The notes beneath the pieces are model-generated. The model had not been told where the DNA came from. It worked only from the letters and a program-made list of their open reading frames with translations, and ran no database searches. DNA of 64,000 bases from Verrucomicrobiales bacterium (lineage in GTDB: Bacteria; Verrucomicrobiota; Verrucomicrobiia; Verrucomicrobiales; DEV007). Shown here one piece after another: positions 3,365 through 30,000 of the stretch (its first letter is position 1; every line of letters begins with the position of its first letter). The position numbers and the translations under genes were made by a program. Where the stretch lies: NCBI GenBank assembly GCA_028033615.1, contig JAOFDG010000002.1, positions 1 to 64,000 of the forward strand. Direction: 5' to 3'.

Positions 3365-4384
3365 CTACTTTTTTGGCTCCTCGGGTTTATCTTCCTGTTT
3401 CGGAACTTGCCAACCCAAGTTGACATAAATTCCAGGAACAGCACTCTTGAGTTTATCTACGCCTGCTTGAGTTACACCTGTTTGCCACACATATAGTTTT
3501 TTTAGTTTCTTAAGGTTTTCAAGATTCTGTAAACCTTCATCAGTTACTTTGGTCCCATAAAGATTGAGATATTCCAAATTCTCAAGCTTACCAATTTCCT
3601 GTAGAGTCTTATCTGAAATTACAGTATTCTCTAGGTGTAATTTGGTAAGCTTCGATAACTGCCCTAAATCAGCAGCAGCCTGATCAGTAATCCCACTCCG
3701 TGAGAGATCAAGCCATGTAAGGTGATCCTTAACAGGAACCAGTAATTTGACTTGTGCATCATTAAAGCTCTTAGCAACATTTATTACATTGGCAGATAAG
3801 TATTTCGTATCTTGAGCCAACTGCATAACCAGAATCCCAGCTTTTCCAATCGCAGTTATGTCGGCACCATTCGCAGGCTGAGGTGGTTCAGGTAAGTTAA
3901 AAGCCTTCTTAATTTCTCTGGGAGGAGAATAGTCAATTGCGGCAATCATAATACCAATATCCTCAGGAACATTGACTTCGGAAATTTTCTTGTCATAGTT
4001 CGCTCCTTCGGCAATCCACCAACTTAACATTTTCTTATGTTCCTCAGAAAGACGCTTCTTACCATCTGGGGGCATTACTTCTTCATCATCTATTGGAAGC
4101 ATAATCCTCTCAATCATCATGCTTTCATCAATATCGCCAGCCACAACGCTTTCGCTTTTCTTTATTTCTTCTGGATTATGTAAACGAATCTTCCCTTTGG
4201 CTTTTGAAGAGCCGTGACATGTTGTGCAATTGGAGGAGAGTATTGGTTTTATTATATGCTCATAAATCTTATCTTTTTCTGGGTCGAGTTTCCTCTTCTC
4301 TGCAGCAAAAGTCGCGCTTGATAAAAAGAATAATAAAGACATTGAAAAGGCCAATGATTGGGAGATTAAATTTTGTAGCAGCAT
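3365..4384 (-). CDS. Secreted cytochrome c (planctomycete-type) domain plus leucine-rich repeat protein
   Basis: Signal peptide; single CxxCH (NCTTCHGSSKAKGKIRLH); C-terminal LRRs (LTKLHLENTVISDKTLQEIGKLENLEYLNLYGTKVTDEGLQNL). Confidence 0.85.
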   Translation of the reverse strand: MLLQNLISQSLAFSMSLLFFLSSATFAAEKRKLDPEKDKIYEHIIKPILSSNCTTCHGSSKAKGKIRLHNPEEIKKSESVVAGDIDESMMIERIMLPIDDEEVMPPDGKKRLSEEHKKMLSWWIAEGANYDKKISEVNVPEDIGIMIAAIDYSPPREIKKAFNLPEPPQPANGADITAIGKAGILVMQLAQDTKYLSANVINVAKSFNDAQVKLLVPVKDHLTWLDLSRSGITDQAAADLGQLSKLTKLHLENTVISDKTLQEIGKLENLEYLNLYGTKVTDEGLQNLENLKKLKKLYVWQTGVTQAGVDKLKSAVPGIYVNLGWQVPKQEDKPEEPKK

Positions 4385-16753: not shown

Positions 16754-18484
16754 TTATTTATTTAATTGTGGAGAAGTGTCTTGAAACTGTGGGTCAGTCA
16801 AAGTTTTCAAAAATGCAACGATAGCTTTTTGATCCAATTCATTCAATTGAATTCCTTGAACTGGATGCTTAGCGAGGTTCGGATCTAAAGTTTCAGACCT
16901 ATAAATACTAGAAGTGTAATGAGAAACAACTTCTTCCAACGTTTTGAATCTTCCATCATGCATGTAAGGGGAAGTAAGTTCAACGTTACGAAGCGATGGA
17001 GTTGAAAAAATACGATTTTCTTCGTTCCTTAATTTTTTTGGCTTTAAACCGTTATCATGAAATTCATTATCTGTGAAAAGAGCCCCGCCATGACAGTGAA
17101 AACAATCTGCACCAAAACTAGCTAACCTAGGCTCATACTCAGTCATAAATAATTCAAATCCCCTCTTCTCAATTTCTGTCATCTCCAATTTTCCTGACAT
17201 CGCTCGATCAAATTTGGAATCATACGAAGTTAGTGTCAGAAGGTAATTTTCAAGAGCCAATCCAATTTTTTCTCCTGTAACTGCGTCATCATTAAATGCC
17301 ATAGAAAATAAAGATTTGTATTTTTTATCTTTAGATATTTTATGCACAACAGTTTCAATCGAATTATCAAATTCTATATGATTAGTAATTGGTAATAGAG
17401 CCTGATCGCGAAGAGATGGAACTCGCCCATCCCAAGAGAACCTTTTTTTCCAAGCCAAATTAAAAAGAGGCATTGAATTCATTTTTCCTTCTCGACCATT
17501 AATGCCAATGCTTTGAGAAAAACCGTCAGTAAAAGCTTTGTCCTTCTCATGACAAGAAGCACACGATATAGATTCATCACGAGATAAAATAGGATCAAAA
17601 AAAAGTCTTTTTCCTAGCCTTACCCGACCTTGAATCAATGGATTATCAATTGGAAGATTTGGCACCGGAAACGTCCTTGACACCTTAAAAGGGAAAGGTT
17701 GATAGTCTTCTGGCAAATATAACGGTCTCTTCGTTGCATTTTTTAAACCTAGAACTTTTTCATAAAAAACATTATTAACACGGAATGATTCAACAAGGTT
17801 TGATTTTAATGAATCGATAATTGGATCCCCCTTTTTTGAATGCGTTGATTCCCCATCTTTATTAAAAACTAATGGTTGAGGAGATGACAGTAAGGAAGCT
17901 AAATCAAAATCGATTATAATTGAAGTGGGTGAACTATGATCTATTAACATTGGAACATTGATCAATGTTCGATTAGCACTCCTTGCTAAATGAAAGGAAT
18001 AACCACTCCTTTTACTTTTTCCACGATAATGTCCTTCCAATGCTAGAAAAATATAACCTCCCTGCCAGCTCCAATGCAAATTATTGAGTGCAGGGTTTAA
18101 AGGATGCTTTGGCCCATATTTATTGGGATGAAACTTGTTTGTAGATTCATCAAGACCTATATGAAACCTAAAAGCCTTATAAATACCTTTTGATAAACCA
18201 TTTATCATAAAGGTGTCGCGGCGCTTAAATGCGTCTATCCATATTATATTTTTGTTAGTATCTGTCCATGTCCCGTCCTCTCTTTGAAAAGAAAGGTCAC
18301 TAATTAAATAACTAAGCCGGCTGACAGAAAAAACCTCACCGCCTAATTTTGAATATCTCAATGAATCTAGAAGTAGCGGCTTACCAGAAACATTATGCCT
18401 AAATTTTATATGTACCGGTGAAGGTATAACTGTACAAATACCGAGAAGGAATACTATTAATATGATTGTTCGCCTGCAGAACAT
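16754..18484 (-). CDS. MbnP-like domain fused to MauG/MbnH-type di-heme cytochrome c peroxidase
   Basis: N-terminal MbnP-like region (FRHNVSGKPLLLDSLRY...SRLSYLISDLSFQ...FHIGLDESTN...HPLNPALNNLHWSWQGGYIFLALEGHY...GYSFHLA); C-terminal peroxidase with two haem sites, CASCH (17549-17563) and CFHCH (17090-17104). Confidence 0.85.
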   Translation of the reverse strand: MFCRRTIILIVFLLGICTVIPSPVHIKFRHNVSGKPLLLDSLRYSKLGGEVFSVSRLSYLISDLSFQREDGTWTDTNKNIIWIDAFKRRDTFMINGLSKGIYKAFRFHIGLDESTNKFHPNKYGPKHPLNPALNNLHWSWQGGYIFLALEGHYRGKSKRSGYSFHLARSANRTLINVPMLIDHSSPTSIIIDFDLASLLSSPQPLVFNKDGESTHSKKGDPIIDSLKSNLVESFRVNNVFYEKVLGLKNATKRPLYLPEDYQPFPFKVSRTFPVPNLPIDNPLIQGRVRLGKRLFFDPILSRDESISCASCHEKDKAFTDGFSQSIGINGREGKMNSMPLFNLAWKKRFSWDGRVPSLRDQALLPITNHIEFDNSIETVVHKISKDKKYKSLFSMAFNDDAVTGEKIGLALENYLLTLTSYDSKFDRAMSGKLEMTEIEKRGFELFMTEYEPRLASFGADCFHCHGGALFTDNEFHDNGLKPKKLRNEENRIFSTPSLRNVELTSPYMHDGRFKTLEEVVSHYTSSIYRSETLDPNLAKHPVQGIQLNELDQKAIVAFLKTLTDPQFQDTSPQLNK

Positions 18485-24069: not shown

Positions 24070-27000
24070 CTAATTTACAGTTATTCTCATAAAACGAATT
24101 CTTGAACTATCATTATCGTTGAAATTAAATTGTAAACTAGCTCTAACTGTTTGCATTACATCACCCTCTGAAATTACCTGATAAACTACTTCGTCAGGAG
24201 CATACCTCCAATTAGAGAGGTCCTCTGAAACCTGAACTCTGACCTTGTAATCACCTAGAGATCTTAAAATTGTATATGTTAGGAATAGACTTTCATCATC
24301 TCTTGTTACCTGAGGGAGTAGATTATTCGGATCTTGATTAAGAGGATCTAGAGCGAAAATATACTCTAGAAGATTTGAAATTCCATCTTGGTCAGGGTCA
24401 TCCATAATACCCGTTTGAGCTAGAAACTCTTCTCCAAATTGATCTACAGCCCATTTCCCATATACATCATTAATTTCGGGAGTAAAAATACTCCAACTAT
24501 CATTAATACCCCAACTCATTATTTGAGCTTTGGAATCAACTATAATTAGAGAGGAGCCTAGCCCATCTGTTTCAGGGTACCATTCATCGTCATATTCAAA
24601 ATCAAGAATTCCAGCAGAAATTGAAGACAATTCAATACGAATTCTTTCACCACCATTATCAAGCTTACCACTGTATTCACCAGATATATTCGGAGTTTCA
24701 CCATTCTCTGAAACAAATACTTCAATATTTTTAACCACATAAACAGACTGACCCGGGTCAAGAGTCGATTCAGGAAATACATAATTAATTCCTTCCACAA
24801 AGCGTAGATTTCCAAGTGGAATTGTTTCCTCTCCAATATTCTCTAATTTAATGTATTCACCGTCTGCACCTGATAAAGGATTATACATTATTTCAGTTAT
24901 TCTAAGACTCTGAATAATTTTTTGTTCTACAAAAAGGTCAGACTCGTTTGAATAGCCAGGAGTTGGTAATTGGAAAGACGTTAAAAAATTATTACCATCT
25001 AAAACCCTACCTCGAGATATATTATCTAATGAATTAGCATAATCAATCCGATCAATTTCATTTACATTGGCATCAAAAAGACCTATCTCATCCTGAATTT
25101 TGGAAAGAGAAAAGTTTAGATGTGGGGAGCCTTGATTTGAATTGTCGTCAGCAATATATTTAATGAAACCGTTCGCCTCGATATAACTTAATTGAGGAAT
25201 AATGTATTTTTGTGGAAAATTATTAGGATTATCACTTAAAGACATCCCCCCAAGGTGAACTGGGTAATTATAATTATTATAGAGCTCTAAAAAATCATTA
25301 TCAAAAACAACACCGCTACTTGATAACCATTCGTTGATTACCATACCTCCACTCGGGGCTATTGGAAGCTTTGAATTATTAGCCGAACCTGGAGTGGGTA
25401 GCATTAAAGCAAATTTACCATACCTTCCATATCTTCCAATGGATTTGTCTGTGAGCTGACTACCAAACTCAATACTATCAATGATTTTTCCTCCGTTTTG
25501 AGGTGATTCAAAAAGAGAAATTGATTCACCATCACGATCTAAACCAAAACCAATATGCAGGCCAGTTGTGCCATCAGGGTCATTGGCATATATCGTAAAA
25601 AATTGATTCGGCCCAATGACTGTTCCAGCTGGAAACTGAAAGCCCGAACTAATATCATTATCCTGAGAAATAACCATGCCAGAAAGAGCTTTGGTAAAAT
25701 CACTATCATTCCATAATTCGATGTAATCAGGAAAAGTTCCCTCATGAGTGAATGATCCTTGATTATCTGCAAGGATCTCGTTGATGACTAATCTTGAAGC
25801 ATCATTATCAACGACCCAAGTTTTTGACCTTGTCGAATTTTCCTGCCATTTTCCGGCAGAATTTTTACCTAAGACTTCAACAAATTGAGGACCTTCTGTT
25901 AGTTGCTCAAGTTCTATCGGCTGATCAATTTTCACAGGCTCTGACCACTCTTGATTATTTAATCTCCAACGATACTCAGTAGTAAAACTGGCGTTATCTT
26001 GGATGCCCGAAATACCAGGAATATAAACACTAATTTGTGCATTATTTTTCCGAGTTATTGAATTAGGCTCTCCACTAATTGAGGCACCAAAAGGAATATT
26101 CCAACCCATATCGAGACCATTGATACCTGATCCAGCGGCGGGTGATCCATTACTAATTGAAAAGTTTAAATCATAAAATAAAGGGTCACTTGCAATATTC
26201 CCTTGGCCGAGGTCTAAGCTTTCTTTTGGAAGAATATTTTTTTCGGCAATTATTTCTGGATCATTTTCTTGTCCTTCTGAAAATTGATGTGCAAATAAAG
26301 GTGCATCTAAATCAAATATATTGCCACGAACAGAAACTTTCCGACCTGGAACAACTCCCTCTCTTAAAGGCTCATCAAAACTAATTGAAGCAACCCCGAC
26401 CCTAGCAACGGTATTATTCTCGAATATTGCATCACTGTTATTTTTAAGAAGTAATGCATGGTCAACATCATAGAAAAGGTTCCTAATCACAGTGAGGTGA
26501 GCATCACCATCTGTAGCAATAGCCGCCGCACTACTTTCTCTGTCAGGATCATCTTTGTGGACATTAAAAAATTTATTTCCTTCAATGTGCGCATCAATTC
26601 CATCAAAATCCAAACAATCATCTGTGCTACCAAAAAAAGTATTATTGATAACATAAATAATCGGCCCAGGCCTTCTCCCGCCAGAAAAATCAATTATATC
26701 ATTATAACCAGAAGATGTACCAAAAGAATTTCCAGAAAGGTTAAAGAAATCATCACCATCAAGATTCTCACCGTGTATAACTTCTTCACCAGAAGTAGAA
26801 GGAAAATTGCAATTAATGACATTTACTTGAGGGTGACTTAGTTCAAGTATTGTTTTATCCGTCCCTGTCCAGGTTACTTCTTCTAGATGAAGCCTAGAAC
26901 TCAATATATTAATGGATTGGTCACCGTCATCAGATCTATCTTGTATGAAATTTGATAATTTATTACTTTCTAATGTTTCCTCAAAATATATTCCTTCCCA

Positions 27001-30000
27001 ACCTCTTGAGGAATTAGGCTGACTAGTAAATGTAATCGGGTTAAGATCTGCTCCTTCAGCTATTAGCTTTCCTTTCACGGTCAGTCTTGAGCCCTCTGAA
27101 AAATAAACAGTTACACCTGGTTCAATAATTAAGGTAAAGCCTGAGGGAACTTCATAATCTTTATTAATAAGATATGGACTAGCTTCAAGACTCCAGGTCA
27201 CATCTTCTTCAATTGGCTGAACCAAACTAGTTTCCTCAGTATCATACCAAATTGGCACTAAATCAGAACCTATAACTTTACCTTCAGAATCAAATGCTTC
27301 AACGGTGACTTGATTAACTCCAGGTGACATTAAAGGAACGGGGCCAAGTCCTAATAATTCTAAATCGAAACTAATATCTCTACTGCTAGGACTTCTTTGA
27401 TGGATTTCTACAGCAACAACGTTATTTCCATTTTTCAGAGATTCTGAGCTAATGTTGAAATTTTGAAAAGTTGCATTCCTTACAGTATCCGTAGCCAAGC
27501 TCAAATAATTGGAATCAAGTTCTAAATTTTCTCGAACCAGCTCAATGCCGTTTAGATAAACCGCAGCTCCGTCATCATAAAGCAATTCAAGTCTAAGGCT
27601 TGCAAATCTGTCAGTGTCAACTACATCAAAACTCTTCCTGAAATAAGTAGTAATATACTTATTATCAGGGTCGTCTCCAAAAGAGAGCGTAGTCACTTCT
27701 CCCCTGTCACCATAGCCCATTTTAGTTATGGCTTCTTTCCAACTAGAATCATCAAAGTCAGAATGACGCCATTCTATACCCTGATCACTGCCGTCATCTA
27801 AATATTTCCATTCAGAACCAGCAGAAAAAACCACCTGAGATTCTGCCAAATCTCCATCCCATGTACCATCTCTCCTATTGAGTGGAACCGACATACCATT
27901 AACTCTTATTTCGGTAGTAAGCTTTGCATCAAAGGTCCCCTCTAAACCTGTTAAACCTTGGTCAGTTGTTCTAGCAAAACTATTAGAACTCGATAGTGAG
28001 CTTTGTGCTGTAAAATCTCCTGATATTTGAGAAAGAATGTATGCCCTGCGGTCATCCATAAAACTTATAACATCACTCAAAACGTCACTATCTTCAGGGA
28101 GCCAGTTTAAAAAGTTTTCGACAAGACTATCAAATTTATCTTTAGAAAAAACCGTATTCAAAAGGTCTTCAAGATTTTCATAATAGAGCCTCAGAACTTT
28201 TGGCTCATTAAAAAACTCATTCAACTGCGGCATCGTTTGACCTCCGAAATTCGTAATTGCAGGGAACATAGAATCATCAGGATCCGTGTCCGTATCACCA
28301 AGTCCAAAAATTGTATCAAAATCATGCGGAATTAGTTTGAACCGCTTATCTTCTAACCCACTATACAATTTGTAATCATCATCTGTTCCATTAGATAAAT
28401 TAGTTTCTCTACTGAGCACGATAGTCATAAAAGCAAACCACCGGGTCCATTGCTCAACATCTACAACTTCAGAAACACCTTGAAAATATTCATCGCTTGA
28501 AGTGTTATTCATAACTCTCATGAAACGATGCAAGTCGGACCAATCGTCTAATGATTCATTCGATCCTTTTGACCAGCCGTCAGAACGATAACGATTAGAA
28601 TCTGGCCCTAGTGCCTCGGTTGACCTGATAGACCATTTCACATCAGGACGAGCCTTAGAATAAATATTACCTCCTGAGTCATTTGGGTAATGGTCATCCG
28701 CCCACTGACCATCAATAGCTTCAACATGGAGATACGAACCATATCGACGTTCATTATCGTTATCATTTGCTCTATTAACCCCATTATACCTCAACTGAAC
28801 AGGTCTTGCTGATGCAGCTTCAATTCCTGATAAACTCGCTAAACGAGATCCTAAAAGTTGAAGATAAATATATTGGCTATTTAAATTAATTTTGGTTGTT
28901 CCGTTCAAAGGGTTATCGCGTGGAATATTAAGGCGATTATTCCGTGGATTTCTCGTCCTACTTCCAGCCCCCCGAACCCGAACACCACATTGGTATCGTA
29001 TATCGTAGTCTTTACCCTGCCTAACTATTAGAGTTGCATTCTTCTGCGCATCACTAGAACTATTGAAATTACGAAAACGAAAATCTCTATCCTCACTGGC
29101 TGTCATAACCATTCTATAAACTGGCTGGGAGCCAGAAAAATTCTCATCATCGAATTGAAATAACGCGTTAGGACCCTCTCCACTTTCTCCAATGTTTGGC
29201 CATCTTCTAACTGAATCACCAGCGGTTGATTTGATATAAAATTCAATCACAGTTTCATTATCTTGAGCTGGGACTAAAGCACTAAAAATACCATCACCTG
29301 CTTTAAGGTCTCCATTAGTACCTTGATCTTGCATTATGGACTCAATAAAATCACCGGGATCTAAAGTTGAAACCCTCCAATATAAGTTTGCTCCTAAAAT
29401 AAAATCTTCGACTCCCCTTAATTTAGTACTTACAACTACTTCTTGCCCAGAGCGAGGTACAGGAGGGTTATGTTTTACATTCAAAATTAGAGGAGCATTA
29501 AGTGTTAATGAGTTATTGTTTTTACTTCCTGGTGTGGGTGAATTTCCAGGGAACCAATTCTGGCCATGCTTGTTAGAAACATTAATGTTCGCTAATTGCA
29601 ATGATGCTCCGCCCCCATCAGTTGGTGTACTCCATTTCCACCCGGTCTCATCTCTGAGCACACTCGGATCGTCTTCACTCGCTCTAATAGCCCAATCCCC
29701 TTGATCAGAGTACGTCACATCATCAACTTCATCACCTAGCGCGTCTTTAATTCTTATTCTTTCTCCTCTGTTGCTTAACTGTCCTTCCCAAGGCCCAATT
29801 AAATTATCAAGAACACCATAGGTAGATACAAATTTTTCAGGATTTGCTGCAATCACGTAATACTCACCAGGAAGAATACTTACTTCTGGAAATTTAAAAT
29901 TAATCCCAGAACTAAAACTCCAACCTTTCAAAGGTACAGGGCCAGAACCAAGATTGTGCAATTCAATAAATTCCTCAGAAGGGTCACCTGATGACGGGTT

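What the first reader, a model, noticed from the sequence alone, without database searches (positions are those of the whole stretch)
16754..18484. One-polypeptide fusion of an MbnP-like copper protein and a MauG/MbnH-like di-heme peroxidase
The 576-aa ORF has an MbnP-like N-terminal half (including FHIGLDESTN and NLHWSWQGGYIFLALEG) and a di-heme peroxidase C-terminal half with CASCH and CFHCH. MbnP and MbnH are known as partner proteins encoded by separate neighbouring genes, where MbnH post-translationally oxidises a Trp of MbnP to kynurenine to create a copper site. A cis fusion would put substrate and modifying enzyme on one chain. The Trp residues in HWSW (around 18063-18080) are candidate targets. 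Whether this fusion architecture is already catalogued is unknown to me.
Basis: partly seen in the sequence, partly recalled or inferred. Interest (0 to 1): 0.7.

Follow-up and report, generated by a model that had tools for sequence, protein, structure and literature searches.

The report
Fused MbnP–MbnH copper protein and enzyme
This bacterial gene joins, on one protein chain, a copper-binding protein (MbnP) and the two-haem enzyme of the kind (MbnH) that elsewhere is a separate protein that activates it; the joined form is real and is the standard form across the phylum Verrucomicrobiota.

Summary
ORF 16754-18484 (-), 576 aa, is one uninterrupted chain: signal peptide, MbnP domain (PF20243, E 8e-29), ~30-residue linker, di-haem CCP/MauG domain (PF03150, E 7e-54; best NCBIfam model MbnH). 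Fold searches agree: the N-half model's only significant PDB match is MbnP (7L6G); the full-length model's best is MbnH (6E1C). It is not an indel artefact: full-length homologues (42-64% identity) occur in many relatives. Every intact MbnP found in a phylum-wide genome sample is fused, and 79 of 80 loci from a public genome scan are fused (the 80th stops at a contig end), all Verrucomicrobiota. Bacteroidota and Proteobacteria examined here have separate neighbouring genes. The first Trp of WxW (W138, the residue oxidised to kynurenine in MbnP, by recollection) is invariant in 37/37 independently found fusions, as are H137, H165 and H215. The MauG/MbnH-type haem-ligand Tyr (Y523) is kept. Fusions lack the Met at W-2 shared by unfused MbnPs, hinting at an altered copper site. 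Many sit beside a YHYH-domain gene, though not this one. Kynurenine formation in cis is inferred, not shown. A new variant of a known kind; no description found in the open literature held here.

The parts
16754..18484 (-). Whole fusion gene: MbnP domain plus di-haem CCP/MauG (MbnH-like) domain, 576 aa
18422..18484 (-). Predicted Sec signal peptide (residues 1-21); export inferred
   Evidence: sequence MFCRRTIILIVFLLGICTVIP; no signal-peptide program was run
17858..18421 (-). MbnP domain (residues 22-209)
   Evidence: PF20243 E 5e-30, 8e-29; AF2 pLDDT 93.8, pTM 0.90; only significant PDB matches are the six chains of 7L6G MbnP, E 1e-9
18065..18073 (-). WxW motif: W138 (18071-18073, predicted kynurenine precursor) and W140 (18065-18067)
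   Evidence: W138 invariant in 37/37 independently found fusions; W140 36/37; both align with WxW of separate MbnPs
17990..17992 (-). H165, candidate copper ligand conserved in fused and separate MbnPs
17840..17842 (-). H215, invariant in fusions and absent from the separate MbnPs aligned; candidate extra copper ligand (H137 at 18074-18076 has the same pattern)
17699..17782 (-). Inter-domain linker, about residues 235-262, partly low-confidence in the model
   Evidence: residues 243-251 pLDDT < 50; alignment
16784..17698 (-). Di-haem CCP/MauG domain, MbnH-like
   Evidence: PF03150 E 7e-54; TIGR04039 E 1e-63; best fold match of full model is MbnH 6E1C, E 1e-19
17549..17563 (-). First haem-binding motif CASCH (residues 308-312)
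   Evidence: invariant cysteines and His
17090..17104 (-). Second haem-binding motif CFHCH (residues 461-465)
   Evidence: C464/H465 37/37, C461 36/37
16916..16918 (-). Y523, aligned with the Tyr of MauG and MbnH that replaces the axial Met of ordinary di-haem peroxidases
   Evidence: alignment; conserved wherever the region is present

Best explanation
The gene encodes an exported, self-contained MbnP-MbnH protein. The C-terminal di-haem domain is most likely activated by H2O2 to a high-valent (bis-Fe(IV)-like) state and oxidises the first Trp of the WxW motif (W138) in the N-terminal MbnP domain to kynurenine. That completes a Cu(I) site built around kynurenine, H165 and probably H137 and/or H215. 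The flexible linker would let the domains meet within one chain or between two copies. Shown: both domains, their folds, the fusion, and conservation of the haem and WxW residues. Inferred: export, kynurenine formation, copper binding, and cis rather than trans action. The physiological role, probably copper handling, is not known.
For: Profile matches to MbnP and CCP_MauG well above Pfam cut-offs; MbnH is the best NCBIfam model; fold matches to 7L6G MbnP and 6E1C MbnH. W138 37/37, W140 36/37, H165 37/37. Y523 aligned with the Tyr of MauG and MbnH, plus two CxxCH motifs. Separate MbnP and MbnH-like genes adjoin in Pseudoalteromonas and Chondrinema. CorA and MopE have copper sites with two His and a kynurenine, with a co-transcribed di-haem protein suggested as the oxidant (PMC3912023). 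Peroxidase-domain tree: fusions consistent with one origin, in the same part of the tree as Bacteroidota pair enzymes.
Against: NCBIfam equivalog cut-offs not reached. Fusions lack the Met at W-2 found in the separate MbnPs aligned here and in 7L6G, so the copper site may differ or be absent. No Trp-to-haem distance could be measured (no coordinates). No expression, mass or metal data.
Confidence: 0.68

Rival explanations
1. The di-haem domain is an ordinary or signalling peroxidase and the MbnP domain is its electron-transfer or copper-sensing partner. The Trp is a hole-hopping residue and is not converted to a stable kynurenine.
For: The fusion's copper site lacks the Met of the aligned separate MbnPs. 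Di-haem peroxidases usually take electrons from small redox proteins (general knowledge).
Against: Y523 in place of Met is the MauG/MbnH hallmark; W138 is strictly kept as in separate MbnPs; best family and fold match is MbnH.
Confidence: 0.17
2. The fused enzyme also, or mainly, modifies another protein, for example the YHYH-domain protein encoded next to many fusions.
For: YHYH (PF14240) gene in the locus of 54 of 80 fusions, usually just upstream on the same strand; one degraded MbnP gene also sits beside a YHYH ORF.
Against: The window's fusion and its closest relatives L043-L045 have no YHYH neighbour, and no YHYH was found in this (54% complete) genome.
Confidence: 0.12
3. The fusion is an assembly or frameshift artefact of two adjacent genes.
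For: Separate adjacent genes occur in other phyla.
Against: Same one-frame fusion in independent assemblies, including the isolates Chthoniobacter flavus Ellin428 and Rubritalea marina DSM 17716.
Confidence: 0.01

Closest known systems
MbnP/MbnH gene pair (TIGR04052/TIGR04039; structures 7L6G and 6E1C, Methylosinus trichosporium)
   Same: Both domains by profile and fold, WxW motif, conserved His, two CxxCH, MauG-type Tyr
   Different: One chain instead of two; Leu in place of Met at W-2; extra invariant His residues (H137, H215); below the equivalog cut-offs
CorA/CorB and MopE/SACCP of methanotrophs (PMC3912023)
   Same: Copper site of two His plus kynurenine with a co-transcribed di-haem protein; the fusion's extra His residues may give a similar ligand set
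   Different: CorA and MopE are separate from their enzymes; the methanobactin genome-mining paper reports MbnP sequences not markedly similar to them (PMC3621798)
MauG (methylamine dehydrogenase maturation)
   Same: Di-haem domain with Tyr at the axial position and the WDGR Trp
   Different: MauG acts in trans on another protein and makes tryptophan tryptophylquinone, not kynurenine
Bacteroidota MbnP plus di-haem peroxidase pairs (Chondrinema litorale)
   Same: Closest separate-gene relative among those compared; px1 39% identical to the fusion
   Different: Separate adjacent genes, in either order; MxWxW motif

Membership tests
MbnP (PF20243) | Profile score above the Pfam cut-off | tested here: met
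   101 bits vs 27
MbnP (PF20243) | MbnP fold | tested here: met
   7L6G chains are the only matches with E <= 0.001; TM 0.59-0.66 over the query
MbnP (PF20243) | WxW motif | tested here: met
   W138-S-W140
MbnP TIGR04052 equivalog | Score above the curated cut-off | tested here: not met
   34 vs 140 bits; Chondrinema MbnPs also miss it, Pseudoalteromonas passes
MbnP (PF20243) | First Trp converted to kynurenine and copper bound | not testable with these tools
   needs mass spectrometry and metal analysis
CCP/MauG superfamily (PF03150) | Profile score and two CxxCH haem motifs | tested here: met
   183 bits; CASCH and CFHCH
MauG/MbnH group | Tyr in place of the axial Met of the second haem | tested here: met
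   Y523 aligns with MauG and MbnH Tyr
MbnH TIGR04039 | Score above the curated cut-off | tested here: not met
   215 vs 363 bits, though best of all NCBIfam models
MbnH | Stable bis-Fe(IV) state and Trp oxidation in MbnP | not testable with these tools
   needs spectroscopy
MbnP/MbnH as a separate neighbouring gene pair | Two genes | tested here: not met
   one ORF; same in relatives

The most novel reading that the evidence does not exclude
A phylum-wide, self-maturing copper protein: the chain carries both its own Trp-to-kynurenine oxidase and the copper site, which has been rebuilt with extra His ligands in place of Met, and it works in many species in an operon with YHYH-domain proteins of unknown function.
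Probability: 0.35. Interest if true: 0.65.

Novelty: new variant of a known kind. Interest (0 to 1): 0.47.

Why it matters
A fixed 1:1 enzyme-substrate chain would be a convenient system for studying how di-haem enzymes oxidise a distant Trp, because no complex formation is needed. It would extend kynurenine-copper chemistry to Verrucomicrobiota, where MbnP is found almost only in this fused form. The clade-specific His residues and the YHYH neighbour give direct leads on the copper site and the pathway.

Tried and rejected
Merged-gene artefact: rejected, because relatives carry the fusion in one frame. Single-genome curiosity: rejected. Phage or plasmid origin: no MbnP relative in IMG/VR or phage records; the plasmid matches to the fusion cover only the peroxidase half, about 48-57% of the query, among the rows shown. 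Sequence search of the MbnP half against the PDB found nothing real; only fold comparison did. An apparent unfused MbnP in the phylum (G172) proved to be a truncated copy beside transposase-like ORFs. Fusion frequency outside Verrucomicrobiota could not be sampled: genome searches centre only on held handles. Of the 204 confirmed stretches in the genome scan, only the best 80 were shown, and its pattern (LHWxW) favours fusions. Papers: no held paper on an MbnP-MbnH fusion; the 2021 MbnP paper and the 2019 MbnH paper are not held.

Full report
What is there. The 576-aa ORF at 16754-18484 on the minus strand has a signal-peptide-like start, an MbnP domain at residues 22-209 (PF20243, 101 bits, cut-off 27) and a di-haem CCP/MauG domain (PF03150, 183 bits, cut-off 25.6). 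NCBIfam ranks the MbnH model first for the C half, but below its equivalog cut-off; the MbnP model is also below its cut-off. Two separate MbnP/peroxidase pairs from a Bacteroidota plasmid also miss these cut-offs, while a Pseudoalteromonas pair passes.

Fold. AlphaFold2 on 68 fusions gave pLDDT 82, pTM 0.72 for the mature chain; its best PDB match is MbnH, 6E1C, E 1.2e-19. The N half alone gave pLDDT 93.8, pTM 0.90; its only matches with E <= 0.001 are the six chains of MbnP 7L6G. A short stretch of the linker (residues 243-251) is low-confidence.

Not an artefact, and not rare. Full-length fusions at 42-64% identity occur in the same genus, family and order. In a sample of 291 genomes of the phylum, 16 have MbnP. 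In 15 of them it lies in ORFs of 467-814 aa, and blastp finds the peroxidase in each of those loci. The 16th is a truncated MbnP fragment beside transposase-like ORFs, with a YHYH ORF upstream. A scan of public genomes returned 80 loci, all with Verrucomicrobiota titles; 79 are fused and the other ends at the contig edge. The set includes the isolates Chthoniobacter flavus Ellin428 and Rubritalea marina DSM 17716, whose domains were confirmed. That scan's pattern (LHWxW) favours fusions and only the best 80 of 204 were shown, so it does not measure other phyla. In Chondrinema (Bacteroidota) and Pseudoalteromonas the two proteins are separate neighbouring genes.

Origin. A tree of 48 peroxidase domains is consistent with a single origin of the fused form: one change needed, support 82/53, 85% of bootstrap trees. 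Chondrinema enzymes fall in the same part of the tree, with weak support.

Residues. In 37 fusions found without the Trp pattern, W138, H137, H165 and H215 are invariant; W140 is 36/37, with Pro in L014. W138 and H165 align with residues shared by separate MbnPs; H137 and H215 do not. Separate MbnPs have M-x-W-x-W; the fusions have L-H-W, with one M-H-W in L031. Recollection of the 2021 MbnP paper (not held): the first Trp of WxW becomes kynurenine, and the copper site has a His, a Met and solvent. If the Met at W-2 is that ligand, the fusions must use something else; H137 and H215 are the natural candidates, which would resemble the two-His kynurenine site of CorA (PMC3912023). This is inference. 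Y523 aligns with the Tyr of MauG and MbnH.

Neighbours. In 54 of 80 loci a YHYH-domain ORF (PF14240) is present: 46 upstream and 6 downstream on the same strand, one opposite, one in the same ORF. Spacing is mostly a few bases to an overlap, measured between stop-bounded ORFs. Some YHYH proteins carry a sulfatase domain. The window's fusion has no such neighbour; its flanks are a GspG-like and a PQQ-repeat (BamB-like) gene, shared with close relatives.

Conclusion. Function in cis is the best inference but untested. The fusion is a widespread variant of a known pair, with no description found in the papers held.

Noticed in passing
L048:4917-9854 (JAPYUT010000003.1; apparently the same as G026:C109): One 1646-aa ORF joins MbnP, a peroxidase domain that appears to lose its C-terminal part, a YHYH domain and a sulfatase. 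Could be a natural deletion fusion or an assembly join; seen once.
   Followed up: partly
L049, L050, L057, L104, L115 and about 50 other fusion loci: YHYH-domain protein (PF14240), in some cases with a sulfatase domain, encoded next to the fusion; function unknown.
   Followed up: partly
L137:1731-2189: Truncated MbnP ORF with a YHYH ORF upstream and transposase-like ORFs downstream: a degraded copy.
   Followed up: partly
L130 (G000:C76, about 26142-27035): Second di-haem CCP/MauG protein of this genome, 354 aa, unfused, about 36-41% identical to the fusion's C half; no other MbnP found in the genome.
   Followed up: partly
L122:3944-8279 (Chondrinema litorale plasmid): Two MbnP/peroxidase gene pairs in tandem with opposite internal order.
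   Followed up: no
window 3365-4384 (-): Protein with a C-x-x-C-H motif near its N terminus followed by leucine-rich-like repeats; by eye a planctomycete-type cytochrome c protein.
   Followed up: no
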